Shown here piece after piece: positions 3,837-41,707 of a stretch of 44,991 nucleotides of DNA (within the stretch, counting starts at the first letter, position 1; every line of letters begins with the position of its first letter). Below the pieces are notes generated by a model. It saw nothing but the letters and a program-made list of their open reading frames with translations. It made no database searches and was not told the origin of the DNA. Location of the stretch: contig JAIBEO010000128.1 in the NCBI GenBank assembly GCA_019459185.1, positions 1 through 44,991 on the forward strand. The letters are read 5' to 3'. The stretch comes from Rhizobium sp. (GTDB lineage Bacteria; Pseudomonadota; Gammaproteobacteria; Xanthomonadales; Xanthomonadaceae). Position numbers and translations under genes: made by a program.

Positions 3837-4780
3837 TGGGCGCCCGCCTTGCGCAGCATCGCGGCGCGCACCTCGTCGTCGACGCGCGACAGGGTCCTGG
3901 CCGGGCCGTCGAAGGCCGACTCGGGGAAGTTGGCGTCGTAGCGGTCGACGCGCTTTCCGCCATAGCCGCGGATCAGTTCCGGGGTGGCCGCCGCGGTTTC
4001 GTGCACTCGGCCGAAGGCTTCCTTCAGCGCCTGCTTGAGCGGCGCCGGCAGGCCGGTGTGCAGCGCCATGGGCGGGTTGGGGATCGGATTGCTGCGGGCG
4101 AGGACGCGGAACGCGTCCGGCTCGATGATCCCGCTGTCGAGTGCGCGCACGTACGATTCGAAGCTCAGGCAGGCGGCATCCACCTGGCCCTCGGCCAGCG
4201 CCGACAGGCTGGCGGCGTGGCTGCCGGTGAGGCGGATGGCGCCCAGGTCACGCGCCGGGTCCAGGCCCTTTTCCAGCATCATCGCCACCTGGTAGGTGAA
4301 GCTGGAACCGGAGTTCACGTCGCCGAACGCCACCGACTTGCCGCGCAGCTGTTCGATGGAGGTGACCGGCGAATCGCGCGGCACGAAGATGGCCGCGTAA
4401 TACACCGACTGTCCATCGAGCACGGACACCGCCAGCAGCTCGGCGGCGCCGGCGTCGCGGGCCTGCACATAGGCCACCGGGCCCAGCCAGGCGACGTCGA
4501 CCAGGCCGGCCTTCATCGCCTCCACCACGGCCGAGTAGCTCTGGCCGACCCGCAGGTCGAACTCCAGCCCGGTCTGCTCGCCAACCGCCTTGAACAGCGG
4601 CGCGAAGTCGGCGAGCGTGCCGGTGGCGGTGCCACCGTCGGCCGGGATCAGCATCACCCGGAGCGGCGCCTGGCGCGCGGGTTCGGCGTCCTTGCCGCAG
4701 CCGCCCAGGGCGAAGGCCAATGCCAGGGTGAGCAGGGTCGCCAGCGCCAGTTTCAGCGCGCGAAAGGAAGTGGTTTTCAT
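3833..4780 (-). CDS. phnD: Phosphonate/phosphate-type ABC transporter binding lipoprotein (PhnD-like)
   Basis: A 315-residue solute-binding protein anchored as a lipoprotein: signal segment at residues 5-25 and lipobox LGGC with Cys28. It has the PhnD-family body, including the early PADGGTATGTLADFAPLFKA, the SYSAVVEAMKAGLVDVAWLG segment, GKSVAFGDVNSGSSF and the LSALAEGQVDAA segment. This family binds phosphonates, phosphite, phosphate and similar ligands, so the name gives the transporter type and not a proven ligand. It is the first gene of the coupled importer cluster and lies 88 bases downstream of the HAD phosphatase gene on the same strand. Confidence 0.9.
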   Translation of the reverse strand: MKTTSFRALKLALATLLTLALAFALGGCGKDAEPARQAPLRVMLIPADGGTATGTLADFAPLFKAVGEQTGLEFDLRVGQSYSAVVEAMKAGLVDVAWLGPVAYVQARDAGAAELLAVSVLDGQSVYYAAIFVPRDSPVTSIEQLRGKSVAFGDVNSGSSFTYQVAMMLEKGLDPARDLGAIRLTGSHAASLSALAEGQVDAACLSFESYVRALDSGIIEPDAFRVLARSNPIPNPPMALHTGLPAPLKQALKEAFGRVHETAAATPELIRGYGGKRVDRYDANFPESAFDGPARTLSRVDDEVRAAMLRKAGAQ

Positions 4781-30168: not shown

Positions 30169-30468
30169 ATGAGCGCTATCAATTTCCAGACGCCAGAAGA
30201 GATCCAGTCCGAGCTGGGAGAACGGCTGCGCCAGCTTCGGCTTGGCAGGCGGTTGACCCAGGCGGGGCTGGCCAGCCGGGCGGGTGTTTCCCCCCGGGCG
30301 CTGCGCGCCCTGGAAAGCGGTGAAGGCTCGAACCTGGTCACCTTGATCCGGGTGCTGAAGGCGCTGGAGGCGCTTGCCAGCCTTGACGCGCTGGCACCGC
30401 AGCCCACGGTGAGCCCGATGGCCCTGCTTACCGGCAGCCGCCTGCCCAAGCGTGGCACCCGGAACTGA
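30169..30468 (+). CDS. hipB: HipB-like XRE-family antitoxin
   Basis: A 99-residue DNA-binding protein with an XRE helix-turn-helix at about residues 16-70 (LGERLRQLRLGRRLTQAGLASRAGVSPRALRALESGEGSNLVTLIRVLKALEAL). The C-terminal 25 residues are polar and should contact HipA. It should neutralise the kinase encoded 6 bases downstream and repress the pair through the inverted repeats at 30088-30145. No strong ribosome site is visible before the ATG. Confidence 0.88.
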   Translation: MSAINFQTPEEIQSELGERLRQLRLGRRLTQAGLASRAGVSPRALRALESGEGSNLVTLIRVLKALEALASLDALAPQPTVSPMALLTGSRLPKRGTRN

Positions 30469-30474
30469 CAGGGC

Positions 30475-31755
30475 ATGAAGCACGTCGAGGTCATCGAGGT
30501 GCGCATCTGGGGCAAGCGGGTGGGCGCCGTGGCGCGGGACCCGAGCCTGGACGCCTATGTATTCGAGTACGCCGACAGTTGGCGCGGGTCTGGGGTGGAG
30601 CTGTCCCCCTTCCTGCTGCCGCTGGGCGCGCCCGGTGGCCTCTTCTCGTTCCCGGCCCTGGACCCGGAGGCCTTCCACCGCTTGCCCGGCCTGCTGGCCG
30701 ACGCCCTGCCCGATGATTTCGGCAACCAGCTCATCAACGGCTGGATGGCCAGCCACGGCGTCCGCGCGGACCAGGTGACCACGCTGGACCGCCTGGCCTA
30801 CATGGGCCGGCGCGGCATGGGCGCGCTGGAGTTCAAGCCCATGCGCGGCGCCAGCGCCGAAAGCGCGGCCCCGATCGAGATGAAGGCGCTGGTGGAAGAG
30901 GCCCGCAAGGCCGTGCACGGCGACCTGGGCGGCGACCGTGAGGCCCGCGCGGCACTGGCCAACATCATCCGCGTGGGCACCTCGGCCGGCGGCGCGCGGG
31001 CCAAGGCGGTGGTGGCGTGGAACCCGGCCACCAACGAGTTGCGCAGCGGCCAGTTCGACGTGGCGCCGGGCTTCGGGCACTGGCTGCTGAAGTTCGACGG
31101 CATGGGCGCGGACAAGGAGCTGGGCCAGAGCCAGTGCTACGGCCGGCGCGAGTTCGCCTACCACCTGATGGCCACCACTGCCGGGGTCACCATGAGCGAA
31201 TGCCGCCTGATGGAGGAAAACGGCCGCGCGCATTTCATGACCCGGCGCTTCGACCGCGACGGCAATCGGAAGATCCACGTGCAAACCCTGGCCGCGCTGC
31301 AGCACATGAGCCACCGGCAGCGTCGAACCCACGCCTACGAATCGCTGTTCATGACGGCACACCAGCTGGGACTTTCCAGCGCGGACCTGCAGCAGTTGTT
31401 CCTGCGCATGGCCTTCAACGTGGCTGGCAAGAACCATGACGACCACGCCAAGAACTTCGCCTTCCTGATGCGCGAAGGCGGGCCGTGGGAACTGGCGCCA
31501 GCTTACGACGTGACCCACGCCTACAACCCGGCCGGTGAATGGACGCGGTACCACCTGATGGGCGTGGCCGGCAAGTTCGACGGGATTACCGCCGCCGACC
31601 TGAAGCAGGTGGCGGCCCGTTTCTCGATACCGGGGGCGGGCGGGCTGATCGACCAGGTCAATGCGGCCGTGGCGCGCTGGCCGGAGTTCGCGCGCGCGGC
31701 GGGGCTGCCGGCGGCGGACCGGGACGAGGTTGGGAGGCTGCTGGTGCGGCTGTAG
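30475..31755 (+). CDS. hipA: HipA-like serine/threonine kinase toxin
   Basis: A 426-residue HipA-family kinase. Seen: the ATP-loop-like GTSAGGARAK (168-177), the catalytic loop NHDDHAKNF (320-328; catalytic aspartate in the D-D-H), and the metal-binding D345 in PAYDVTHAY. HipA of E. coli phosphorylates glutamyl-tRNA synthetase and causes growth arrest; relatives hit other targets, so the target here is open. Length and motif order are normal. Six bases separate it from hipB. The N-terminal subdomain is present in this gene, so it is a two-part and not a three-part HipBST system. Confidence 0.9.
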   Translation: MKHVEVIEVRIWGKRVGAVARDPSLDAYVFEYADSWRGSGVELSPFLLPLGAPGGLFSFPALDPEAFHRLPGLLADALPDDFGNQLINGWMASHGVRADQVTTLDRLAYMGRRGMGALEFKPMRGASAESAAPIEMKALVEEARKAVHGDLGGDREARAALANIIRVGTSAGGARAKAVVAWNPATNELRSGQFDVAPGFGHWLLKFDGMGADKELGQSQCYGRREFAYHLMATTAGVTMSECRLMEENGRAHFMTRRFDRDGNRKIHVQTLAALQHMSHRQRRTHAYESLFMTAHQLGLSSADLQQLFLRMAFNVAGKNHDDHAKNFAFLMREGGPWELAPAYDVTHAYNPAGEWTRYHLMGVAGKFDGITAADLKQVAARFSIPGAGGLIDQVNAAVARWPEFARAAGLPAADRDEVGRLLVRL

Positions 31756-32150: not shown

Positions 32151-34121
32151 ATGTTGGGTTCCACTATTCTTGAAGTCGCAATTGGCCTGACATTTGTCTT
32201 TCTGCTGCTGAGTCTTTGCGCGACGGCCCTAGTCGAGGGCATTGTGGAGTGGCGGCAATGGCGCGGGCGGCTCCTTCATGGGAAGTTGCAGAGCCTGCTG
32301 GGCCCGGACCTGCGCGATGTTCTTTACCAAGACCGCCGCATCGCCGACTTGGCCAGCGGTGATCCAGTGCCCCCCGCGCGGTGGGAGGCATGGATCGCAA
32401 GATGGCCTTGGGCGTCGAAGCAGCTTGCCTCATTCCGTCGTAGTGGTGTGTTCATGGTCACCTCGCATTTCGAGGCAGTGGCTGCGGCGCGCAAGTTGAA
32501 CGCGCGGCGGCTGCCATCCCGGATTCCGGACGAGGTTTTTGTCGAGATCGTCTTGGACTGGCTGCAAGGTGTTCAGCTGCCGCAGCAGATGCACCCTGAC
32601 TTCGCTAATGAGCGCACGCTACCGTATCGCCTGGCCACACTTTGGCATGCGATGAATCTTCGGGCGGATGGATCGCAGCCAGCGCTGCGCGAGGAGTTGC
32701 TTCGCTGGTATCGGCAGGCGATGGATAGGGCATCCGGGGAGTACAAGCGACGCATACGTCTTGCGCTCTACGCCATAGGCGCGATTCTCGTGATGTTTAC
32801 CAATGCCGATACGCTCTACATTGCAGGTCGACTCCACGAAGACCCAGCGCTACGCGCCAGCTACGTGTCGCTGAGTGAACGCGTGGCAGCTGAGTGTCCT
32901 CAAGGCGTAGACGCCTGCTCATCGCTGGATCGGATCACCAAGGACATTCTAAAGAATCCTGCCTTGGGCTCTAGCGGACTGCTTGGTTGGTCGGATGAGG
33001 CGTGGCACAGCTTGTCATTGCAGTCTCTATTGGGGTGGTTGCTCACAGTCTTTGCCATTGGGTTAGGCGCAGATTTCTGGTTTGGCGCCCTAAGGAAGAT
33101 GTTGAGCATTCGAAGTGCAGGTGTCCCTGCTGCCGAGGCAGTCGGCACGCGAGTGGAACGGCAACCCGACACGCTCGCGCCGCGTGCGGGCGCGCCACGC
33201 CATCCGCTCGATCTGTCGGCACCGCAAGTCAAGGGATTGCGTGGGTTCCAGCCACTTCGCTATGCCGAGAGCGACGTGCACGCCTTCTGGCTAGCCCACT
33301 TCGCTAGCTTCGCCTACAGCGAGGCCGAGCAGCTGGTTGAAAGCCCGCTTATGAAGGCGCACGGTATTGAGGTGCAGCCTTTCGATACGGCGGGCACCCA
33401 AGGATTTATTTTTTCTTCGGATGCCGCCTGCATTCTGGCGTTCCGCGGAACCGAAATGACCTTGGAAGATTGGATGACCGACGCTGACGCTCGCCAACAT
33501 GAGCCGCCTTGGGAAGAGGCTGGAGAGGGGGTGGGAATCCACAAGGGCTTTCACGATGCGCTAGAGCGTGTATGGGACGAAGTCGCCACGCGTCTGACTG
33601 AGGCCAGGAGGCCCATCTGGATTACCGGCCATAGCCTGGGTGGTGCCTTGGCGCTTCTGGCTGCATCACGATTGACGCGTGAAAGGCCGGCATTGCCGGT
33701 GGCCGGGGTCTATACGTTTGGACAACCGCGCATCGGAAGCAACGCTTGGACGAAGACACTTCCGATCCAATTGCAGCAGCGGATATTCCGCTACGTGAAC
33801 GACAATGACATTGTACCCTTGGTGCCGCCGCAGAGCCCGATTGATTACGAGCATGTCGGGCAGGCACGATACTTTGACGGAAGTGGGCGGTTGCACCATA
33901 CGCGCACGGTATGGGAGCGAATCGCCGAGCAGATAACGCCTGCCTTGAGCATTATTTCGGCTGGAGGCGACGCATGGGCAGAGCACGCGCGGGACCACGT
34001 AAAGGATCGCGTGGCCGATCACAGCATGGCGAGGTATATCGAGTGTCTCGAACGACTCGATGCGGTACGGGCACTGTGGAATCCAGAAGGCTCTGCTCCT
34101 GCGCTGCCGCAATCCAACTGA
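32151..34121 (+). CDS. Membrane-anchored class 3 lipase fusion
   Basis: A 656-residue protein in two parts. The N-terminal half has membrane segments at about 5-29, 203-222 and 291-313, with the conserved MDRASGEYKR (191-200) and NADT (218-221) of a widespread membrane domain of unknown function. The C-terminal part (about 360-600) is an alpha/beta-hydrolase of the class 3 lipase family: FRGTE (431-435), the nucleophile elbow GHSLGG with Ser495, YTFGQPRIG (521-529), the acid in NDNDIVPLVPP (Asp553) and H568 or H582 as catalytic base. It should hydrolyse lipids or phospholipids at the inner membrane. It has a strong ribosome site (AGGAG). Its position in the defence-like island suggests a membrane-damaging effector, but that is inference. 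The gene ends just before an IS remnant; the last residues may have been replaced. Confidence 0.8.
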   Translation: MLGSTILEVAIGLTFVFLLLSLCATALVEGIVEWRQWRGRLLHGKLQSLLGPDLRDVLYQDRRIADLASGDPVPPARWEAWIARWPWASKQLASFRRSGVFMVTSHFEAVAAARKLNARRLPSRIPDEVFVEIVLDWLQGVQLPQQMHPDFANERTLPYRLATLWHAMNLRADGSQPALREELLRWYRQAMDRASGEYKRRIRLALYAIGAILVMFTNADTLYIAGRLHEDPALRASYVSLSERVAAECPQGVDACSSLDRITKDILKNPALGSSGLLGWSDEAWHSLSLQSLLGWLLTVFAIGLGADFWFGALRKMLSIRSAGVPAAEAVGTRVERQPDTLAPRAGAPRHPLDLSAPQVKGLRGFQPLRYAESDVHAFWLAHFASFAYSEAEQLVESPLMKAHGIEVQPFDTAGTQGFIFSSDAACILAFRGTEMTLEDWMTDADARQHEPPWEEAGEGVGIHKGFHDALERVWDEVATRLTEARRPIWITGHSLGGALALLAASRLTRERPALPVAGVYTFGQPRIGSNAWTKTLPIQLQQRIFRYVNDNDIVPLVPPQSPIDYEHVGQARYFDGSGRLHHTRTVWERIAEQITPALSIISAGGDAWAEHARDHVKDRVADHSMARYIECLERLDAVRALWNPEGSAPALPQSN

Positions 34122-34365: not shown

Positions 34366-34668
34366 TCAAAGGCCCGGCGGCTGTTCGACAGAGACTACAC
34401 AGGTGCACTTGGCTCCGATTCCGCAGACGCCAGGGTCAAAAGTGTAGATCGCCCCGTCGCCACATGATGAGACGCATCTGCTCTCGGCCTTGCGTGCCTC
34501 CTGCTCACAGAGTCCCGTTATACCCGACTTGCCAAAGATCGACGCCGCAAGCTCGTGCCGGCTCTTCCGAGCAGATGATGTAGATTCGTGGTCAATATTT
34601 CTCGGGGTGCCCACGGTCGTAAGTGTTGCAGCAACGAGAAAGAAGGTTAGTGCGGTTGCTCCGTTCAT
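34366..34668 (-). CDS. Small secreted six-cysteine protein with defensin-like (CSab) spacing
   Basis: A 100-residue precursor. An uncharged hydrophobic leader (residues 1-20, ALTFFLVAATLTTVG) is followed by a polar stretch and then a cysteine-rich domain: C54-x10-C65-x3-C69-x12-C82-x5-C88-x1-C90. This is the disulfide layout of cysteine-stabilised alpha-beta defensins (C-x3-C in a helix, C-x-C in the last strand). CEQEARKAESRCVSSC is a likely helix, and GVCGIGAKC carries the G-x-C gamma-core. In insect defensins the C4-x5-C5-x-C6 part is the same. I chose the ATG at 34668 because GGGAG sits 7 bases before it; an ATG at 34674 would be too close. No positive charge in the leader is a weak point. 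Function is unknown; antimicrobial, toxin and structural roles are all possible. Confidence 0.55.
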   Translation of the reverse strand: MNGATALTFFLVAATLTTVGTPRNIDHESTSSARKSRHELAASIFGKSGITGLCEQEARKAESRCVSSCGDGAIYTFDPGVCGIGAKCTCVVSVEQPPGL

Positions 34669-34674
34669 CGCCAT

Positions 34675-34905
34675 ACTCCCGAGAATAAGTTTCAAATCTA
34701 AGAGGTGTTCCGGCGTAGCTTGGTCCGCGCTGTCGGCCCGGCGGACAGGTTCTGAGTGCTTCCGGAACGACGCTAGAGTGATTCGTGAGGCATCATGAGG
34801 TAAGCAGGAATTCGCCAGAGTTCTTGTAGGAGTTTTCCTACATTCCTGTGGAAACCGTCGTCGGGGTAGAACCCGAGTTAGTTCCTTAGGAACGGAGAAA
34901 GATGG
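34675..34905. promoter_or_regulatory. Divergent promoter region with two palindromes
   Basis: It separates the cysteine-rich peptide gene (leftward) from the nuclease gene (rightward). TGTAGGA-GTTT-TCCTACA at 34825-34842 is a perfect 7-base inverted repeat, and GTTCC-TTA-GGAAC at 34881-34893 lies directly before the ribosome site of the nuclease gene (GGAGAAAG). The second could be an operator or a translation-blocking structure. The base composition is poorer in GC than the flanks. Confidence 0.5.
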
Positions 34906-36333
34906 ATGGGCGAGGCAAAACGCAGAGGGGCATTCGAACAGCGCCGGATGGAGGCGATAGCCCGGGCGAAGCGTCAACTCGTTGAGAAACTTGGCGGCTC
35001 TGATCCCGAGCGGGACCGCGATCTGCAGCGCGCGTTCGACGCGTTCGTTGGTCGCCTAGGTGCTGACGAGTGGAAGCGACGGAGGAAAGGCGTTATTGAC
35101 CAACTCACTGCATCAGTCCAGGCGGTTGGCGCCGTCCCTTTCGTGCCGCTTCGAGTTCAGCAGGATGAAATAGCTTGGTATCTCCTGTTGGCTGAGCTCG
35201 CCCTCGAAGATCCGCTGAGCCTCGAAGTGAGTCAGGCTTCTCGAGCTCTTCCGTTTCTTGCGGCCATCGGCATGCGCCTAAACTTCGCAGATCGCGTTCT
35301 CTGGCTCAACGAACGATTTGACGACGCGCTAACCAAATATAGAGCCGATCCTGATGGAACGATATTCGAAGTATTGGTCGCGCTTTCTTACGCCTCCTCG
35401 GGTTGGGATGTGGAGCTGCTTCCGTCCTCGAAGACTTCCAAGCAGCCAGATATGCGCGCGGTGAAGGACGGTCTTACGCTTTACATTGAGTGTAAGCGGC
35501 TATCCAGAAGCTCCGAATATGGGGAAAAGGAGCGAAGTCACTTCCTGGAAATGTGGAACGGAGTATCCGACCTGCTCGCTAAGAACAGTCAGTGGCTGTG
35601 GTTGAGGGCAAACTTCAAAGTCGAAGCCAGCGCACTTCCTAAGTCATTCCTCAAAGACTTGGTCTCGAGATCGCTTCCCGTCCCTAACGCCGAGACAAAC
35701 ATCTATGACGGGCCCGAGGCGACTATCGACATCAGGCATATCGATAAGAAGGCTGTCGCACGTCACATGGAGCAATACAGAGTCAAGATGAACTCACCCG
35801 CGATGACGGCGCTCTTGGGGGGCGATTGGGCGCCGTTGGACTCTGCGGTCAGCATTGCCACACTCGTGAAGATCAGTCACGTGGTGGATAGTCCCATCGA
35901 ATTTCTTGCGCAATACGTCGATGAAATCGGGTGGGCCTCGGGTATCACCCGTCACTTTACGTCGCCACGGTCAATTGCCGGAAAAGCGCGAGACATACGG
36001 AAGCGTTTAGCTGATGCTGTGCAACAGTTGCCCCCCGACGAGCTGTCTGTAGTGCACATCGCATACGAAACGATGGATGGGCCCGATGTAGAGGACCTCC
36101 GATTCCAGCGAATAGCAGCTACGCTGAACAAATTCGTGGCTGACAAGCCATTAGCCGGTGTGCGTGTGCACATGCTGCAAGCGCATCAGACCATCGACCA
36201 GTTGTGGGATATCGAAGAGTCGGTGGCCGGTTGGGATCGGAACCCCACACTTCTCAAGGACATTCCAGCGCAAGTGGTGGTCGATCCGGAGGCTGTTCTA
36301 AAGGCTGGTCGGCATTGGGATGCCATGCGCTGA
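34906..36333 (+). CDS. PD-(D/E)XK nuclease-like protein, stand-alone
   Basis: A 475-residue soluble protein. The N-terminus MGEAKRRGAFEQRR is a basic start seen in many nucleic-acid-linked proteins. Residues about 150-200 carry a PD-(D/E)XK core: E155 in TIFEVLVAL, PDM with D182, and LYIECKR with E195 and K197. The remaining 270 residues are alpha/beta without known motifs. No methylase, helicase or partner gene is adjacent on this strand, so a substrate is not suggested. Codon use is AT-richer than the flanking chromosome, which points to transfer. The ribosome site (GGAGAAAG) supports ATG 34906 over the ATG at 34902. Confidence 0.75.
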   Translation: MGEAKRRGAFEQRRMEAIARAKRQLVEKLGGSDPERDRDLQRAFDAFVGRLGADEWKRRRKGVIDQLTASVQAVGAVPFVPLRVQQDEIAWYLLLAELALEDPLSLEVSQASRALPFLAAIGMRLNFADRVLWLNERFDDALTKYRADPDGTIFEVLVALSYASSGWDVELLPSSKTSKQPDMRAVKDGLTLYIECKRLSRSSEYGEKERSHFLEMWNGVSDLLAKNSQWLWLRANFKVEASALPKSFLKDLVSRSLPVPNAETNIYDGPEATIDIRHIDKKAVARHMEQYRVKMNSPAMTALLGGDWAPLDSAVSIATLVKISHVVDSPIEFLAQYVDEIGWASGITRHFTSPRSIAGKARDIRKRLADAVQQLPPDELSVVHIAYETMDGPDVEDLRFQRIAATLNKFVADKPLAGVRVHMLQAHQTIDQLWDIEESVAGWDRNPTLLKDIPAQVVVDPEAVLKAGRHWDAMR

Positions 36334-36772: not shown

Positions 36773-38230
36773 CTATTCGAAAGATTCGGTGTGCCCAGAG
36801 AGAAACCGCGCAATCAGAAGTTCCGCATCATGTGCAACTTCTCGCTCCAGCTCGTCAGCCTCATCACGCGTAGTTGCCGCTTCATCCATCAAATCAGCAA
36901 GAAGGTCTTCCGTCTTTTTCCCGAGCCGGGGAATAGCCACGTTTGCAATGTCGTTCGGAGAGAGCTCCGGCACGCTGGATCCAAATGCAAACCGAATGAT
37001 CTGGGGACGGCCCAGCCTAGGATGACCAAGCGCGCACTGCAGAAACCCACCGCGCACTCCCTTTGCGGGGACAACCCGCATCAAGTGGTTCGTATAAACG
37101 CGCCCAATATGCGACTCGGTTGCGAGAACCGAATGGCCCAAATTGCCATAAACCTGACCAGAGCAAGGAATCAGAATCCAACCTGGCTCGATGTGGTAGG
37201 CCTTCTGCTCACTCTCGCTCAACGAAAGCACGAACTTCGTGATGTCGGGATTTACTTCGAGGATATCGGCGCTGTCCAAATAGGGCATTCCATCGTCGCC
37301 GTAGACGTGCTTGAAGCGACCTGGAACAAATATCCGCGAAGTCATCCCCGAGAGGAGATCAACTTGCCGTGCATCCGCGTTGAACGCAGAGATGATCCTG
37401 TCCACTTCTGGGACGTAGCAACTTGCATCAAGTCTTCGGCGGCGCGAGAACATCTTTCTAGCGCTAATGGAGAAGCCCAGAGAGGCCGGTTCCTCCGTGT
37501 AGGAGGGGAAACAGTCTTCAAACTTTCGCTCCGCAGTCGCAGCTGCCTCGAAAGATCTATTTCGAAGCGAGAGTATTCGGGACACCTTTTGCTGATAGGC
37601 GTCCAAGATCTGTTCGCGCGGTAGCGGCACGGGCAGGGAATCTAGATGCGCCACTTCGAGATGCTTGATGATATGGCCATACTGAGCTGCTCCCATCATT
37701 GCTCTGCCCTGCGGACTCCGCAGGAATGCATAAAGCCAGCCCCAATGCTTCGGGTCACGCGGACTAATGCGCAGAAGGTCGTGAGAGATCAGTGTGTTGT
37801 TATGTGCGACGGTTGAAATAGTCGCCCGTCCGACGCTGCCGGAACACGTAATCAGGATCTGGCCCGGAGTGAGCAGGCGTTCGGAGACGTTGTCCGTTCG
37901 GTCCAGCGACAGGAATTTTCTGGGCGCGGGGCGCAGATCGAAAACTTGAGTTGCTGCAAGGAACGGCGTTCCAAAGTCTTTGCTAACTTGAATTCCCTTG
38001 AGCCGGGACGGCTGCCATACGCGAGCAACGTCGGAAAGAACGCCGCGACCCGCTATGCGCGCATCCATTGCAAGACGGATGCCGTAGCCGCCGGAAAGGT
38101 AGTTCTCTGCCTCCATCCTTCGATCCTTGCATGCAAGAATCGACGCCGGAAGGGCGCTCCACTTCGGCTCATGCCAGGTCCATTCGCCCTGGTCTGGCTT
38201 CGGGGCGCTTAGCGCTGGTCTGATAGCCAT
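36773..38230 (-). CDS. Restriction-modification specificity subunit (HsdS-like)
   Basis: A 485-residue protein with two target-recognition domains separated by helical regions. The first TRD is near residues 75-210 (TPFLAATQVFDL... LLTPGQILITCSGSVGRATI) and the second near 300-440 (MPYLDSADILEVNP... EPGWILIPCSGQVYGNLG). The repeated L/W-I-L-I-x-C-S-G segment is characteristic of HsdS. The last 40 residues form a coiled-coil-like helix. The start overlaps the upstream methylase stop by 22 bases, so the two are coupled. It should choose the DNA sequence for the nuclease-methylase subunit. No separate HsdR gene is present nearby. Confidence 0.87.
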   Translation of the reverse strand: MAIRPALSAPKPDQGEWTWHEPKWSALPASILACKDRRMEAENYLSGGYGIRLAMDARIAGRGVLSDVARVWQPSRLKGIQVSKDFGTPFLAATQVFDLRPAPRKFLSLDRTDNVSERLLTPGQILITCSGSVGRATISTVAHNNTLISHDLLRISPRDPKHWGWLYAFLRSPQGRAMMGAAQYGHIIKHLEVAHLDSLPVPLPREQILDAYQQKVSRILSLRNRSFEAAATAERKFEDCFPSYTEEPASLGFSISARKMFSRRRRLDASCYVPEVDRIISAFNADARQVDLLSGMTSRIFVPGRFKHVYGDDGMPYLDSADILEVNPDITKFVLSLSESEQKAYHIEPGWILIPCSGQVYGNLGHSVLATESHIGRVYTNHLMRVVPAKGVRGGFLQCALGHPRLGRPQIIRFAFGSSVPELSPNDIANVAIPRLGKKTEDLLADLMDEAATTRDEADELEREVAHDAELLIARFLSGHTESFE

Positions 38231-40173
38231 TTTCGGAAAGTCTGTGCAATCTGAAGGGTGTTGTCGTCGACAACCTTGCGGAGCGTCTTCTGTTTCTTAT
38301 ATATCGGGGTGCCTTCCTCGTATTCCTTCACCGTCTCAATGATCTCTTCAACGATTTCGTTGCCTTTCTTGTCACGCACATACGTCCGGACGCCACGCTT
38401 GTCATGGCCGACATGGTTTGCAACAGCCATGAAGACCGAGTACTCGGACCGGGCGCCCGCGGCATCCTCGATCGCAATTTGCTCACTGGTCTTCCGCTGC
38501 AAGACGAGCAAGCTCGTCTGCACACTTACGTTTGGCTGAAATGTATCCGGATGCAGATCTATGGATGCGAGAACCTGGGTGTTTCGCAAGATCCACTCGC
38601 GGACATAACCAAGTCCCGGCGAGCCGAGGATGCCGTCCGGCAGGACCATTGCCACTCGCCCTGTTCCGGGCTTCAAGAAATTGATGCAGCGTTCAATGAA
38701 TAGGATTTCAGGCGGCTGCGAGCGCTGGATGCCTGAGCCCATGGTCCATCTGTCCGTGTCCGCGCTATAACTCCATGTATGGCCAAGATCAAACTTTTCG
38801 AGAATTGCGGGCTCATCGATGGGGATCTTCGATCCGAACGGCGGATTGGTGAAAATTAGGTCCACCTTTCCAAGCAACTTTCTGTCGCGCAGCTCTTCGT
38901 CCCATGTCGCTGGGCTCGCCAGCGAATTCGCTTGGAAGAGGCCGCCAGCCCCATCGTTATTCATGACCATGTTCATCTTCGTGGCCTTGACTAGTTCCGG
39001 GTTGAAGTCAAGGCCAACGATTGAAGCGCCCGCGAACTTTGCGATTCGGGCGGCGATTTTCTGCTCGGCGCGCTTTAGGTCTCCCTTCCACTTCTCAATT
39101 TCGGCCGCGCGAATCTTCTCGATCACATGGTTCATGGCGGCAATCAGAAACCCGCCGGTTCCGCATGCAGGATCGAGAATTAGCTGTCCTTCCGCCGGAT
39201 CCAGCATTGCAACTGCCATGTTGCAGATGTTGCGGGGCGTAAAGAACTCCCCGCGGTCGCCACGCAAGTTTGCGCCGACGATCTCTTCATACGCTTGCCC
39301 CTTTACGTCAACATCGCTTTCCAGCAGGCAATACATCTGCAGCTGAGACACGATGTAGGCAAGGACCGAAGGCTTCAGTGCAATTTCGTCGTTTTCGGCA
39401 AAGATCGACGGATAGTCAGCACGCACGGCGGAGAACAAGCCATCGATGCGCTTTTTTACCTTCAGGTCGCCATTCAAGCCATTCCTCTCGCCCGGTGCGG
39501 CGTAGAACTGGACCTCCTGACTCTCACGCTCGTCATGAATTTTGCAGAAGATCAGCTTCAGGAGCTCCCAGAACGCTTGGGGCTTTTGAAGGCCCTGATT
39601 TCCTGCGATGTAGTTGTGGCAGCGCCGGAATGCGAAAAGCAATGCATCAGAGTTTGCCGGCTTCAGTTGGTCAAAGTGCGGGCGTTCAGCCTCGTCCTCG
39701 CTCTGACCAAAGCTGGGTAGATCCGGGATCTCTAGGAAGGAAATCTTCCCTTTCGACTCAACCTTTCGGTAACAGAATCGCTCGACCCCATTCGTCCACA
39801 TGCCATACGCGGCGTTAGGGCACGCTGACATGTAACTGTGGAGTTGTCCTACGCCCTCCTTCCGGTCGGAAGACTTCACCCGCTTCTCTTTGCACTCGAT
39901 GATAATGTTGGCGTTCTCTTGGTCCCTTCGTGCCGGATCAGAGAAAACTACCAAGTCGGCCCGCGGCTTGCGGGAGCCCAAGCGCAACACGAATTCGACC
40001 GCTACTACATTTCGCGGATAGCCATATTCACGAACGAGTGACTTCGCGATCTCCTGACGGACATATTCTTCCGGCGTCTCAACTCGCTGGGTTCGTCCGT
40101 CGATGAAGTCGAGAACTCGTCCTTGCTGGACGATGACGGCGACCGGCACGCCGTGTTGCAACGAAACGCTCAT
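38209..40173 (-). CDS. Nuclease-methyltransferase fusion (type I/IIB-like M subunit)
   Basis: A 654-residue protein. Residues about 35-130 form an HSDR_N-type PD-(D/E)XK domain: E60 (AVEFVLRLG), D73 in PRADLVVF, then IIIECKEKR with E93 and K95 and a downstream GQLHSYM helix. Residues about 290-560 form an N6-adenine methyltransferase: TPRNICNMA, motif I LDPACGTGGF (about 333-342), then NPPFGSK (443-449) as catalytic motif IV. Combining nuclease and methylase in one chain, with a separate specificity subunit, is the architecture of BcgI-type (type IIB) systems; a helicase motor (HsdR) is missing. I chose the ATG at 40173; the frame extends 27 codons upstream without domain character. Confidence 0.86.
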   Translation of the reverse strand: MSVSLQHGVPVAVIVQQGRVLDFIDGRTQRVETPEEYVRQEIAKSLVREYGYPRNVVAVEFVLRLGSRKPRADLVVFSDPARRDQENANIIIECKEKRVKSSDRKEGVGQLHSYMSACPNAAYGMWTNGVERFCYRKVESKGKISFLEIPDLPSFGQSEDEAERPHFDQLKPANSDALLFAFRRCHNYIAGNQGLQKPQAFWELLKLIFCKIHDERESQEVQFYAAPGERNGLNGDLKVKKRIDGLFSAVRADYPSIFAENDEIALKPSVLAYIVSQLQMYCLLESDVDVKGQAYEEIVGANLRGDRGEFFTPRNICNMAVAMLDPAEGQLILDPACGTGGFLIAAMNHVIEKIRAAEIEKWKGDLKRAEQKIAARIAKFAGASIVGLDFNPELVKATKMNMVMNNDGAGGLFQANSLASPATWDEELRDRKLLGKVDLIFTNPPFGSKIPIDEPAILEKFDLGHTWSYSADTDRWTMGSGIQRSQPPEILFIERCINFLKPGTGRVAMVLPDGILGSPGLGYVREWILRNTQVLASIDLHPDTFQPNVSVQTSLLVLQRKTSEQIAIEDAAGARSEYSVFMAVANHVGHDKRGVRTYVRDKKGNEIVEEIIETVKEYEEGTPIYKKQKTLRKVVDDNTLQIAQTFRKWLSDQR

Positions 40174-40198
40174 TTCTTGCTGCCCCAGATCCTGAATA

Positions 40199-40227
40199 CA
40201 CGGGCAGCGCCCCGGGCGCTGCCCGTG
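40199..40227. repeat. Perfect 12-bp inverted repeat between the methylase and integrase genes
   Basis: CACGGGCAGCGC and GCGCTGCCCGTG enclose CCCGG. It lies just past the integrase stop and 26 bases before the methylase ATG on the same (minus) strand. It is not followed by a T run, so it may be a weak terminator for the integrase, a regulatory hairpin or a recombination-related site. Confidence 0.8.
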
Positions 40228-40274
40228 CACTTTGGCACGGAGGAGGGGGGGCAAGCCAGCCTCTGGAGCCTAGA

Positions 40275-41489
40275 TCATCCGGATCCAGCCAATTTGTTGA
40301 CTGCGGCCGCCAAGTGCTCTGGCGCGAGGTGAGCATAACGGAGGGTCATCGCTAGATCGGCGTGGCCTAGGAGCTCTCGGACGGTGTTCAAGTCCACACC
40401 CGCCATCACCAGCCGGCTGGCGAAGTGATGCCGCAGGTCGTGAAATCGGAAGCTCTCGACCTCCGCCGCGACTAGCAAGCCCTCCCAGGCGCTCTTGACG
40501 CTGGCCACGCCGAAAACTGAGCCCTCGACTGGGCCGCTGGTCTTCCAAGTAGTCAGGACAGCCAGCGCCTCTGCGTTCAGCGGGACGTGTCTCTGTTTGC
40601 CGCTCTTCGCTTGCTCGCGCCGGACTGTCAGCATCCGGGCGTCGAGGTTGATGTCCGACCACTGAAGGGAGAGCAGCTCTCCACGGCGCAAGCCGGTATT
40701 TAGCGCGAGCAGCACCACCGGCGTCAGGTGGTCGCTGTAGGCTCCCGGCGCAACGGTTGGCAGCAACGTTCGCTTGCGCGCCTGACGCCATGAGTTGGCA
40801 GAGGCGCGCGCTGTAGCCGCGGCCGCATCCCGGTCAGCCAGCGCCTTCCGCAGACGCCGCTCCTCCGCTGCGCTAAGGAAGCGCACAACCGTCCGGGGCT
40901 GGGCTGCCTTTACGCGTAGGCTGGCCAGAGGGTTCGCGTCGAGCATTCCCCACTTCACCGCCTTGGAGATCACTGAGCGCAGGCTAGCCAGATCACGCCA
41001 AGCCGTCGCCTTCGAGATCGTCCCGCCGCCGGGCGAGGGCGTCTGCAGCCGCTGGCTCCACCAGCGCTCCACCCACGCGCTGTCGACGGTCACGAGCGCC
41101 CGGGGTAGGGCGGTCGCGAATACGCGCTCAATGCGCTCTAGATAGCTGTCAGCGCCCTTGAGTTCGGCCCGGGCCCATGGCGCGTAGTGATCACGCAGGA
41201 ACGCCCCCAGCGTGATCTTGGGCGTCTGGGGCTTGGCGATGCTGGGCAGTCCCGTCTGGATGAACTCGGAAATGACCTTCGAGGCGATCTCCCGGGCGTT
41301 GTCCAGGGCCAGGTGTCCAGCTGACCCCAGCGTCCGACGCTTACCGTGAGTCCAGGTGACGATCCACGCCTTGTGCCCGCTGGGCTGCACCCTGAGAACC
41401 AAACCACGAACCTGAGCGTCCCTGAGCTCAAAGGGGCGATCCTGGGGCTTGAGGGTCGCGACGAAACGCTTGGTGAGCTGAACTCGCAT
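40275..41489 (-). CDS. Tyrosine-type integrase
   Basis: A 404-residue phage/island integrase. The N-terminal arm (MRVQLTKRFVATLKPQDR...GLVLRVQPSGHKAW) resembles DUF4102-like arm-binding domains of tRNA-targeting integrases. The core-binding SAM-like domain covers about 93-185. The catalytic domain has R268 in NTGLRRGELL, K295, H350 and R353 in FHDLRHHF, H376 in LLGHADLAM, and the nucleophile Y385 in TLRYAHL, so all six residues are present. It lies next to, and points away from, tRNA-Met. It should have inserted the accessory DNA to its left. The gene is GC-rich, unlike parts of the cargo. Confidence 0.9.
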   Translation of the reverse strand: MRVQLTKRFVATLKPQDRPFELRDAQVRGLVLRVQPSGHKAWIVTWTHGKRRTLGSAGHLALDNAREIASKVISEFIQTGLPSIAKPQTPKITLGAFLRDHYAPWARAELKGADSYLERIERVFATALPRALVTVDSAWVERWWSQRLQTPSPGGGTISKATAWRDLASLRSVISKAVKWGMLDANPLASLRVKAAQPRTVVRFLSAAEERRLRKALADRDAAAATARASANSWRQARKRTLLPTVAPGAYSDHLTPVVLLALNTGLRRGELLSLQWSDINLDARMLTVRREQAKSGKQRHVPLNAEALAVLTTWKTSGPVEGSVFGVASVKSAWEGLLVAAEVESFRFHDLRHHFASRLVMAGVDLNTVRELLGHADLAMTLRYAHLAPEHLAAAVNKLAGSG

Positions 41490-41600
41490 GCTTTGGCTTC
41501 CGTAAGTGGCTGATAAGCCAACTTAGGAAGGGCCGCGCGACGAGGTTCGGATGCGGATCGACCGCATCCAATATGGAAGTGGCGGAAGTCCTTGATCCAC
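41490..41600. promoter_or_regulatory. Promoter region of the integrase gene with inverted repeats
   Basis: GGATGCGG-ATCGA-CCGCATCC at 41549-41569 is a perfect 8-base inverted repeat, and TTGGCTT (41493-41499) / AAGCCAA (41515-41521) form a second pair. These are candidate arm or operator sites for the integrase. No direct copy of the tRNA 3' end lies here. Confidence 0.45.
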
Positions 41601-41626
41601 AAAAAAACCCGCAGAAATGCGGGTTT
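41600..41626 (-). terminator. Rho-independent terminator of tRNA-Met
   Basis: Read leftward: AAACCCGCA, loop TTTC, TGCGGGTTT, then T's (41601-41607 on the plus strand are A's). The stem is nine perfect base pairs, followed by a U tract. Confidence 0.9.
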
Positions 41627-41630
41627 AGTA

Positions 41631-41707
41631 TGGTGGCTATGGGTGGACTCGAACCACCGACCCCGTCATTATGAGTGACGTGCTCTAACCGGCTGAGCTA
41701 CATAGCC
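41631..41707 (-). tRNA. tRNA-Met (elongator), anticodon CAU
   Basis: The minus strand reads GGCTATGTAGCTCAG...TCATAAT...GGTTCGAGTCC...CATAGCCACCA, a full cloverleaf with encoded CCA. The 7-base acceptor stem pairs GGCTATG with CATAGCC, and the anticodon loop contains CAT. It closely matches the E. coli elongator tRNA-Met layout, and it lacks the initiator-type mismatch at the stem end. Its 3' end faces the integrase, as expected for an integration site. Confidence 0.95.

What the first reader, a model, noticed from the sequence alone, without database searches (positions are those of the whole stretch)
34366..34668. Bacterial peptide with the cysteine layout of CSab defensins
Seen: six cysteines at 54, 65, 69, 82, 88 and 90 of the predicted 100-residue precursor, spaced C-x10-C-x3-C-x12-C-x5-C-x-C, after a hydrophobic leader and a 30-residue polar stretch. 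Known: this C...CxxxC...C...CxC pattern, with a G-x-C gamma-core, defines cysteine-stabilised alpha-beta defensins of insects, plants and fungi, and the last spacing (x5, x1) equals that of insect defensin A. Defensin-like peptides are rare in bacteria and have been reported from myxobacteria. Inferred: a secreted antimicrobial or predation-related peptide, or an antagonist of eukaryotes, made in an accessory island.
Basis: partly seen in the sequence, partly recalled or inferred. Interest (0 to 1): 0.85.

Follow-up and report, generated by a model that had tools for sequence, protein, structure and literature searches.

The report
Bacterial defensin-type peptide family in Arenimonas
A small bacterial peptide with the six-cysteine layout of insect defensins turns out to belong to a family in Arenimonas and related bacteria that the family libraries searched do not know, and whose long-precursor relatives are each paired with a membrane protease gene, so it is most likely a weapon or signal used between microbes.

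Summary
A 100-codon gene on the MINUS strand (34668-34366) encodes C-x10-C-x3-C-x12-C-x5-C-x-C after a hydrophobic leader; the family pattern occurs in 0 of 300 shuffled windows. It is not a lone oddity: I accept 18 relatives in Lysobacterales, 9 in Arenimonas and 9 in other genera. Fifteen of the 19 have six cysteines; two lack exactly Cys2 and Cys5, the expected disulfide partners; two membrane-anchored ones lack Cys1. A profile of 14 six-Cys members finds three variants of insect defensin ARD1 in the PDB (E 0.0028-0.0087), six cysteines in register; a reversed control finds nothing significant. No Pfam, NCBIfam or PHROG model covers the representatives scanned. Outside Arenimonas, 7 of 7 long precursors are followed by a Rce1-like (CPBP) membrane protease gene with its catalytic motifs. 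No Arenimonas copy has that neighbour; the window copy lies in a low-GC integrase/tRNA-Met island with restriction genes. Best reading: a Lysobacterales lineage of bacterial CSab peptides, probably bacteriocin-like (inferred). Antimicrobial action and eukaryotic targets are untested; this core is slightly acidic.

The parts
34366..34668 (-). gene of the six-Cys CSab-type peptide precursor, 100 aa (102 aa if ATG 34674 is used)
   Evidence: translation; homologues; start chosen by GGGAG 7 nt upstream
34603..34668 (-). hydrophobic N-terminal leader (residues 1-22), weak Sec-type signal
   Evidence: hydropathy (best 12-residue mean 2.04); cleavage site not predicted
34510..34602 (-). polar pro-region or N-terminal tail (residues 23-53)
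   Evidence: sequence
34399..34509 (-). Cys domain (residues 54-90), C-x10-C-x3-C-x12-C-x5-C-x-C with GVC before the last hairpin
34676..34680 (-). GGGAG, candidate ribosome-binding site
   Evidence: bases printed; not tested
40275..41489 (-). tyrosine integrase of the island that carries the peptide
   Evidence: PF00589 E 2.6e-31; GC 0.55-0.60 over 32-40 kb against 0.63-0.69 on either side
41631..41707 (-). tRNA-Met beside the integrase, probable attachment site
   Evidence: ARAGORN; no exact repeat of 12 bp or more of it elsewhere in the window
36773..40254 (-). restriction-modification genes of the same island (HsdS-like 36773-38230; N6-methylase with HSDR_N 38209-40254)

Best explanation
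The gene makes a small exported peptide whose C-terminal 37-47 residues fold as a cysteine-stabilised alpha-beta (cis-defensin-type) domain with pairing 1-4, 2-5, 3-6. It belongs to a family of such domains in Lysobacterales that is not in the family libraries searched. Inferred action: the precursor is exported through the inner membrane, the cysteines are oxidised in the periplasm, the N-terminal region is removed, and the domain acts outside the cell on competing bacteria, in the way of bacteriocins. In distant relatives a CPBP membrane protease encoded directly downstream either releases the domain from its hydrophobic anchor or protects the producer. Step by step: coding and conserved, shown (0.97); CSab framework, strongly supported by sequence (0.85); exported, probable (0.85); interbacterial bacteriocin-like role, inferred (0.45); protease as processing enzyme rather than immunity, open (about even).
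For: Nine Arenimonas relatives with the six-Cys layout; together with the window copy they lie in 8 of 27 genus genomes. Five more six-Cys members in other genera. Profile of 14 of the 15 six-Cys members (L018, nearly identical to L013, left out) against 177,635 PDB sequences: 4 hits at E<=10, three variants of insect defensin ARD1 at 0.0028, 0.0055, 0.0087 with six Cys in register and a scorpion alpha-KTx at 0.67, all CSab peptides; reversed control only E 2.3; hhalign score 25.3 against at most 16.6 in 120 column-permuted controls. Two four-Cys relatives lack exactly Cys2 and Cys5. Outside Arenimonas the gene right downstream is PF02517 in 7 of 7 long precursors, the seventh predicted before it was looked at; EExxxR, FxxxH, HxxxN motifs present in 7 of 7. 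CAAX/CPBP proteases are common in bacteriocin clusters as immunity, processing or receptor proteins (PMC9298176, passages).
Against: No structure model. Core net charge -2 here and mixed in the 18 members measured (7 negative, 5 zero, 6 positive; -4 to +3), unlike typically cationic antibacterial defensins. No CPBP gene beside any Arenimonas copy (two of these contigs are only 3.4 and 10.2 kb), and no evident immunity gene among the small ORFs beside the window copy. Xanthusin-1, the tested Myxococcus CSab peptide, had no antimicrobial activity (PMC11561630). GxC in 12 of 15 six-Cys members, not all. Two membrane-anchored relatives have five cysteines (Cys1 missing), leaving one without a partner. 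With the four-Cys rows in the profile the ARD1 match weakens to E 0.095; with Arenimonas rows alone the best PDB hit is a scorpion CSab peptide at E 1.4; the single sequence has no such hit.
Confidence: 0.5

Rival explanations
1. CSab-type peptide that is a secreted signal or a sensor ligand, not a killer: the CPBP protein with its extra N-terminal region would be the processing enzyme or the receptor.
For: Core charge not cationic here and mixed in the family; a response-regulator-like gene (recognised by eye, L066 4830-5597 minus) lies divergent upstream of one CPBP-linked precursor; the CPBP partners carry a long region before the protease core, with cysteines conserved in the four partners of family f7; CAAX proteases are linked to maturation of signal peptides in S. 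aureus and S. anginosus (PMC9298176); xanthusin-1 inactive as antimicrobial.
Against: In the other listed loci I saw no kinase or regulator directly beside the precursor (by eye); up to four copies in a genome and patchy distribution look more like competition genes.
Confidence: 0.25
2. Defence-island effector: in Arenimonas the peptide is part of anti-phage islands and helps them, for example as a toxic peptide released on infection.
For: Three of the four Arenimonas copies outside the exeA-putA site lie beside restriction genes: window (HsdM/HsdS), G002 (type IIG enzyme, McrBC), G004 (GmrSD and HsdM/HsdS).
Against: Six of ten Arenimonas copies sit at one chromosomal site between exeA-like and putA-like genes, the tenth beside a transposase-like gene and sugar-epimerase/acyltransferase-like genes (by eye); an exported peptide is an odd anti-phage effector; islands collect unrelated cargo, and no background rate was computed.
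Confidence: 0.12
3. Antagonist of eukaryotes (protists, fungi).
For: Best structural match by sequence is the insect defensin ARD1; AdDLP of Anaeromyxobacter acts on Plasmodium (PMC5116183 passages).
Against: Fold class does not predict target; nothing in the loci that I listed points to eukaryotes.
Confidence: 0.1
4. Cys-rich peptide of another fold that only imitates the CSab spacing, or a chance ORF.
For: No model; the Cys3-Cys4 loop is 11-13, longer than x9-10 in C6 defensins; Cys pattern alone can mislead.
Against: 0 of 300 shuffles; 18 homologues; profile and hhalign controls; paired absence of Cys2 and Cys5.
Confidence: 0.08

Closest known systems
Insect defensin ARD1 and C6 (invertebrate-type) cis-defensins
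   Same: Six cysteines in register, first loop x10, CxxxC, CxC (ARD1 alignment)
   Different: Cys3-Cys4 loop 11-13 here against 9 in ARD1 and 9-10 in the C6 motif; Cys4-Cys5 x5 here against x7 in ARD1; bacterial leader; core not cationic in the window copy
Bacterial cis-defensins of classes I-V (PMC11561630), including xanthusin-1
   Same: Six-Cys CSab peptides of bacteria with GxC; class IV has a 21-53 residue N-terminal tail, comparable with the 31 residues here
   Different: Its main text has 0 occurrences of Arenimonas, Lysobacter, Xanthomon, Stenotrophomonas, Luteimonas, CAAX (supplements not seen); its screen took Cys3-Cys4 loops up to 12 and precursors up to 130 aa without membrane segments, so the 11 of 15 six-Cys members here with loop 13 fall outside (the window copy, loop 12, would fit the pattern)
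Actifensins / actinomycesin (PMC6989792, PMC8819291)
   Same: Bacterial CSab peptides, proven antibacterials
   Different: 69-aa precursor with ABC transporter genes nearby; Cys3-Cys4 loop 9-10; the 2021 survey found such peptides only in actinobacteria and myxobacteria
AdDLP of Anaeromyxobacter (four Cys, CSH motif only)
   Same: Four-Cys defensin-like bacterial peptide, proposed ancestor
   Different: AdDLP keeps only the CSH motif and lacks GxC (PMC5116183); the four-Cys relatives here lack Cys2 and Cys5 and keep 1, 3, 4, 6
CPBP/Abi (PF02517) proteins of bacteriocin loci
   Same: Membrane protease encoded next to a small-peptide precursor
   Different: The examples in the passages read (PMC9298176) are streptococcal and staphylococcal; here beside CSab precursors in Gammaproteobacteria, with a long region before the protease core

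Membership tests
CSab superfamily (cis-defensins) | Cysteine array C...CxxxC...C...CxC, six cysteines | tested here: met
   window and 14 relatives
CSab superfamily (cis-defensins) | GxC gamma-core before Cys4 | tested here: met
   GVC in the window; 12 of 15 six-Cys members
CSab superfamily (cis-defensins) | Sequence similarity to a solved CSab structure | tested here: met
   A5 profile, ARD1 E 0.0028-0.0087, controls; weaker with other row sets and none for the single sequence
CSab superfamily (cis-defensins) | Helix plus antiparallel sheet | not testable with these tools
   Structure prediction switched off
CSab superfamily (cis-defensins) | Disulfides 1-4, 2-5, 3-6 | tested here: inconclusive
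   Joint absence of Cys2 and Cys5 in two relatives fits 2-5; 1-4 and 3-6 not separated; five-Cys forms lack Cys1 only
CSab superfamily (cis-defensins) | Exported peptide | tested here: inconclusive
   Hydrophobic leader in the window is weak; no signal-peptide predictor available
C6 defensins in the narrow sense (arthropod/fungal loop motif) | C-x5-12-C-x3-C-x9-10-C-x4-5-C-x-C (PMC6989792) | tested here: not met
   Loops 1, 2, 4 and 5 fit; Cys3-Cys4 is x12 in the window, 11-13 in the family. So not filed as a C6 defensin; ARD1 itself has x7 in loop 4
Bacteriocin (functional class) | Kills or inhibits related bacteria, with self-immunity | not testable with these tools
   CPBP neighbour in 7 of 7 long non-Arenimonas precursors is circumstantial; no such neighbour in Arenimonas

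The most novel reading that the evidence does not exclude
A Gram-negative two-gene system in Lysobacterales: a CSab domain made at or near the C-terminus of a long exported or membrane-anchored precursor, usually directly after a hydrophobic segment, and set free (or countered) by a dedicated CPBP intramembrane protease. Arenimonas has stripped the system down to stand-alone exported peptides and carries some copies on islands. Two-disulfide relatives that lack the 2-5 pair would then be natural intermediates for how CSab peptides gain or lose disulfides in bacteria.
Probability: 0.35. Interest if true: 0.8.

Novelty: new variant of a known kind. Interest (0 to 1): 0.6.

Why it matters
It adds a lineage to the few bacterial CSab peptides, in an order for which I saw none named in the passages read, and gives it a conserved protease neighbour that can be tested genetically. 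Four-Cys and six-Cys members side by side bear on the debated bacterial origin of eukaryotic defensins (Zhu's hypothesis, as told in PMC11561630 and PMC5116183). Members with a Cys3-Cys4 loop of 13 or precursors over 130 aa lie outside the published screen (PMC11561630), so such peptides may be commoner than counted.

Tried and rejected
Viral contigs: 5 pattern matches, 0 relatives. Plasmids: no match for the window peptide or for one long precursor; the phage collection was not searched. The one scan of named genomes used the sister copy, not the window copy: 21 pattern matches, 2 relatives. Class-level search, 369 genomes: 6 non-own rows, none with six cysteines; L072 keeps only C-x10-C-x3-C. 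Phylum-level, 299 genomes: 1 non-own row, rejected (L103). In the wide searches only about 16-23 first-look candidates per genome were scored, often fewer than half, so members may have been missed. Rejected after printing the frame, as wrong frames, stops or partial patterns: 3 of 13 rows, 9 of 19, 8 of 22, 1 of 7, 3 of 5, 5 of 20. G119, G393 and G658 among them may be decayed copies; in these and in G466 and G458 my own CPBP profile found no neighbour (several are short contigs). If they were counted as members, the CPBP link would not be complete.

Several weak hits (L060, L061, L088, L101) share C-x10-C-x3-C in S/R-rich frames without a hairpin; left out as probable chance frames. DUF6970 (E 0.0087 for one row of 15; 0.08 for that whole protein) rejected as below cut-off. 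Attachment repeat for the island: no exact repeat of 12 bp or more. Promoter scan: none. Halocin C8 (toxin plus immunity in one gene; recalled) was considered for the long precursors; no sequence test was made and the listing was not followed up.

My first pass wrongly called L006, L007 and L008 junk because minus-strand loci were read on the plus strand (note); corrected.

Full report
What is there. The gene lies on the minus strand. From ATG 34668 (GGGAG 7 nt upstream) it encodes 100 aa ending at 34366; the cysteines are at 54, 65, 69, 82, 88 and 90. The tool places the window in an unnamed 3.1-Mb genome. Two same-genus genomes hold contigs equal in length to named records (10,202 and 3,359 bp): Arenimonas malthae CC-JY-1 and a TPA Arenimonas MAG, so the genus is Arenimonas (Lysobacteraceae). 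The family spacing occurs once in the window and in 0 of 300 dinucleotide shuffles; a loose CSab-like pattern occurs in 8 of 300.

The family. A protein search of 199 related genomes gave 13 rows, of which 10 are real on inspection. A profile search of 27 genus genomes found 10 members in 8 genomes. They come in a short form (83-104 aa, seven genes) and a long form (203 aa, three genes). Six of the ten lie between an ExeA-like and a PutA-like gene (named by me from sequence; both neighbours found in A. malthae and, by tblastn, in the other five). That site holds the short form in three genomes and the long form in three. The window genome has both a copy at that site (contig C48) and the island copy studied here.

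Beyond the genus. In 297 family genomes, 299 and 398 order genomes (overlapping samples), 39 genomes of family f7 and 43 of f9, I accept nine further members in six genomes: five six-Cys (L063, L065, L066, L068, L090), two four-Cys (L005/L032, L042/L069) and two membrane-anchored five-Cys (L063:5877-6173, L064:5806-6099). L042 was only marginal by score (E 0.0024) and is kept because of its alignment and its neighbour gene. Class (369) and phylum (299) samples gave no further six-Cys member, but the wide searches scored only part of their candidates in most genomes. Loops of the 15 six-Cys members: x10 and x3 in 15 of 15; third loop 13 in 11, 12 in 2, 11 in 2; fourth x5 in 14 and x6 in L090; x1 in 15; Gly after Cys4 in 15, GxC in 12.

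Fold. No structure could be predicted. By sequence: the single peptide has no relevant PDB match; the Arenimonas-only profile gives a scorpion CSab peptide at E 1.4; adding other genera with four-Cys rows gives insect defensin ARD1 at 0.095 and two unrelated chains at 0.36-0.39; 14 six-Cys rows (L018 left out) give three ARD1 variants at 0.0028, 0.0055 and 0.0087 and a scorpion alpha-KTx at 0.67, nothing else at E<=10. The reversed alignment gives one hit at 2.3. hhalign against ARD1 scores 25.3; 60 all-column permutations reach at most 13.0, 60 with the cysteines kept in place at most 16.6, the reversed rows 10.4; ARD1 had been picked, so that test is not independent. The two four-Cys relatives lack exactly Cys2 and Cys5 (aligned), as expected if these pair; they sit in different families of the order, but independent loss is inferred and no tree was made.

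The partner. Outside Arenimonas the gene next downstream on the same strand, 20-197 bp away in the six measured cases, is a PF02517 (Rce1-like, CPBP) membrane protease in L063, L065, L066, L032, L068, L069. I wrote down the prediction that further members would have it; the one new clear member found, L090, does. So 7 of 7 long precursors. Five doubtful or rejected hits looked at (L067, L091-L094) showed none. All seven carry EExxxR, FxxxH and HxxxN. The 13 genomes searched have 1-8 PF02517 matches each, so adjacency by chance is unlikely. L064 has no such neighbour. No Arenimonas copy has one; the nearest in the window is 22 kb away. Of the CPBP-linked precursors measured (six long plus L063's anchored one), 6 of 7 have a hydrophobic 15-residue stretch in the 25 residues before the Cys domain (mean hydropathy 1.36-2.75; L068 is the exception at -0.06), while the ten Arenimonas ones reach at most 1.17 (L090 was not measured). 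This suggests release by intramembrane cleavage, but it is inference, and membrane topology was not predicted.

Surroundings in the window. The peptide lies between a Lipase_3 protein (32151-34121) and a 475-aa protein without a family above cut-off (34906-36333), followed by HsdS-like and HsdM-like genes, an integrase and tRNA-Met. GC falls to 0.55-0.60 over 32-40 kb against 0.63-0.69 on either side. Two other Arenimonas copies (G002, G004) also sit among restriction genes. With three cases and no background rate I treat this as cargo of defence islands.

Action. Most likely an exported interbacterial peptide. Against it: a slightly acidic core here, mixed charges in the family (7 of 18 negative, 5 zero, 6 positive), and the inactivity of the one tested Myxococcus CSab peptide (PMC11561630). 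For it: the CPBP partner in relatives, up to four copies in one genome, patchiness, and the proven bacteriocin actifensin in the same fold class (PMC6989792). A signalling role is the main rival; on rechecking I saw a response-regulator-like gene beside one precursor (L066), which I had first overlooked.

Literature seen. PMC11561630: parts 1-3 of 7 and passages. PMC5116183, PMC6989792, PMC8819291, PMC9298176: passages. Searches for Arenimonas with bacteriocin or defensin, Lysobacter with defensin, bacterial defensin with Gammaproteobacteria, and CPBP with defensin terms listed no paper that by its title or shown abstract describes this family; only the top rows were listed where there were more, and the library holds open-licence papers only. 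Dash et al. 2019, which by PMC11561630 lists CSab-like peptides of many bacterial phyla, was seen only as a citation and may include members. Insect defensin A spacing, the CSab class of alpha-KTx peptides and the gene names exeA and putA are recalled.

Noticed in passing
window 40275-41707: Integrase beside tRNA-Met with a low-GC stretch to about 32 kb: a genomic island whose left end and attachment repeat were not found.
   Followed up: partly
window 34906-36333: 475-aa protein without a family above cut-off (weak Hjc-like nuclease match, E 0.015) opposite the peptide gene; possibly the missing nuclease of the restriction system.
   Followed up: no
window 30169-31755: Small helix-turn-helix-like ORF plus HipA (HipAB-like toxin-antitoxin pair) near the island; HipA by Pfam, the partner by eye.
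   Followed up: no
window 32151-34121: Class 3 lipase domain behind an N-terminal hydrophobic region, convergent with the peptide gene.
   Followed up: no
L063 5877-6173 and L064 5806-6099: Short membrane-anchored five-Cys relatives in one genome (G405); one follows the CPBP gene in the same cassette, the other stands next to a MAPEG gene.
   Followed up: partly
CPBP partners, e.g. L063 6275-7288, L090 6269-7240: Long region before the protease core, with cysteines conserved in the four f7 partners by eye; may bind the peptide.
   Followed up: no
L066 4830-5597: Response-regulator-like gene divergent upstream of the long precursor; could hint at regulation or signalling.
   Followed up: no
L091 (G658) around 4280-4366: Three-Cys relic C-x10-C-x3-C followed by a stretch resembling the C-terminus of the L068 precursor.
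   Followed up: no
L004, L006, L007: Long Arenimonas precursors share an extra domain (THLVWEDSLGRR) that the short forms at the same chromosomal site lack: loss or gain of a pro-domain.
   Followed up: partly
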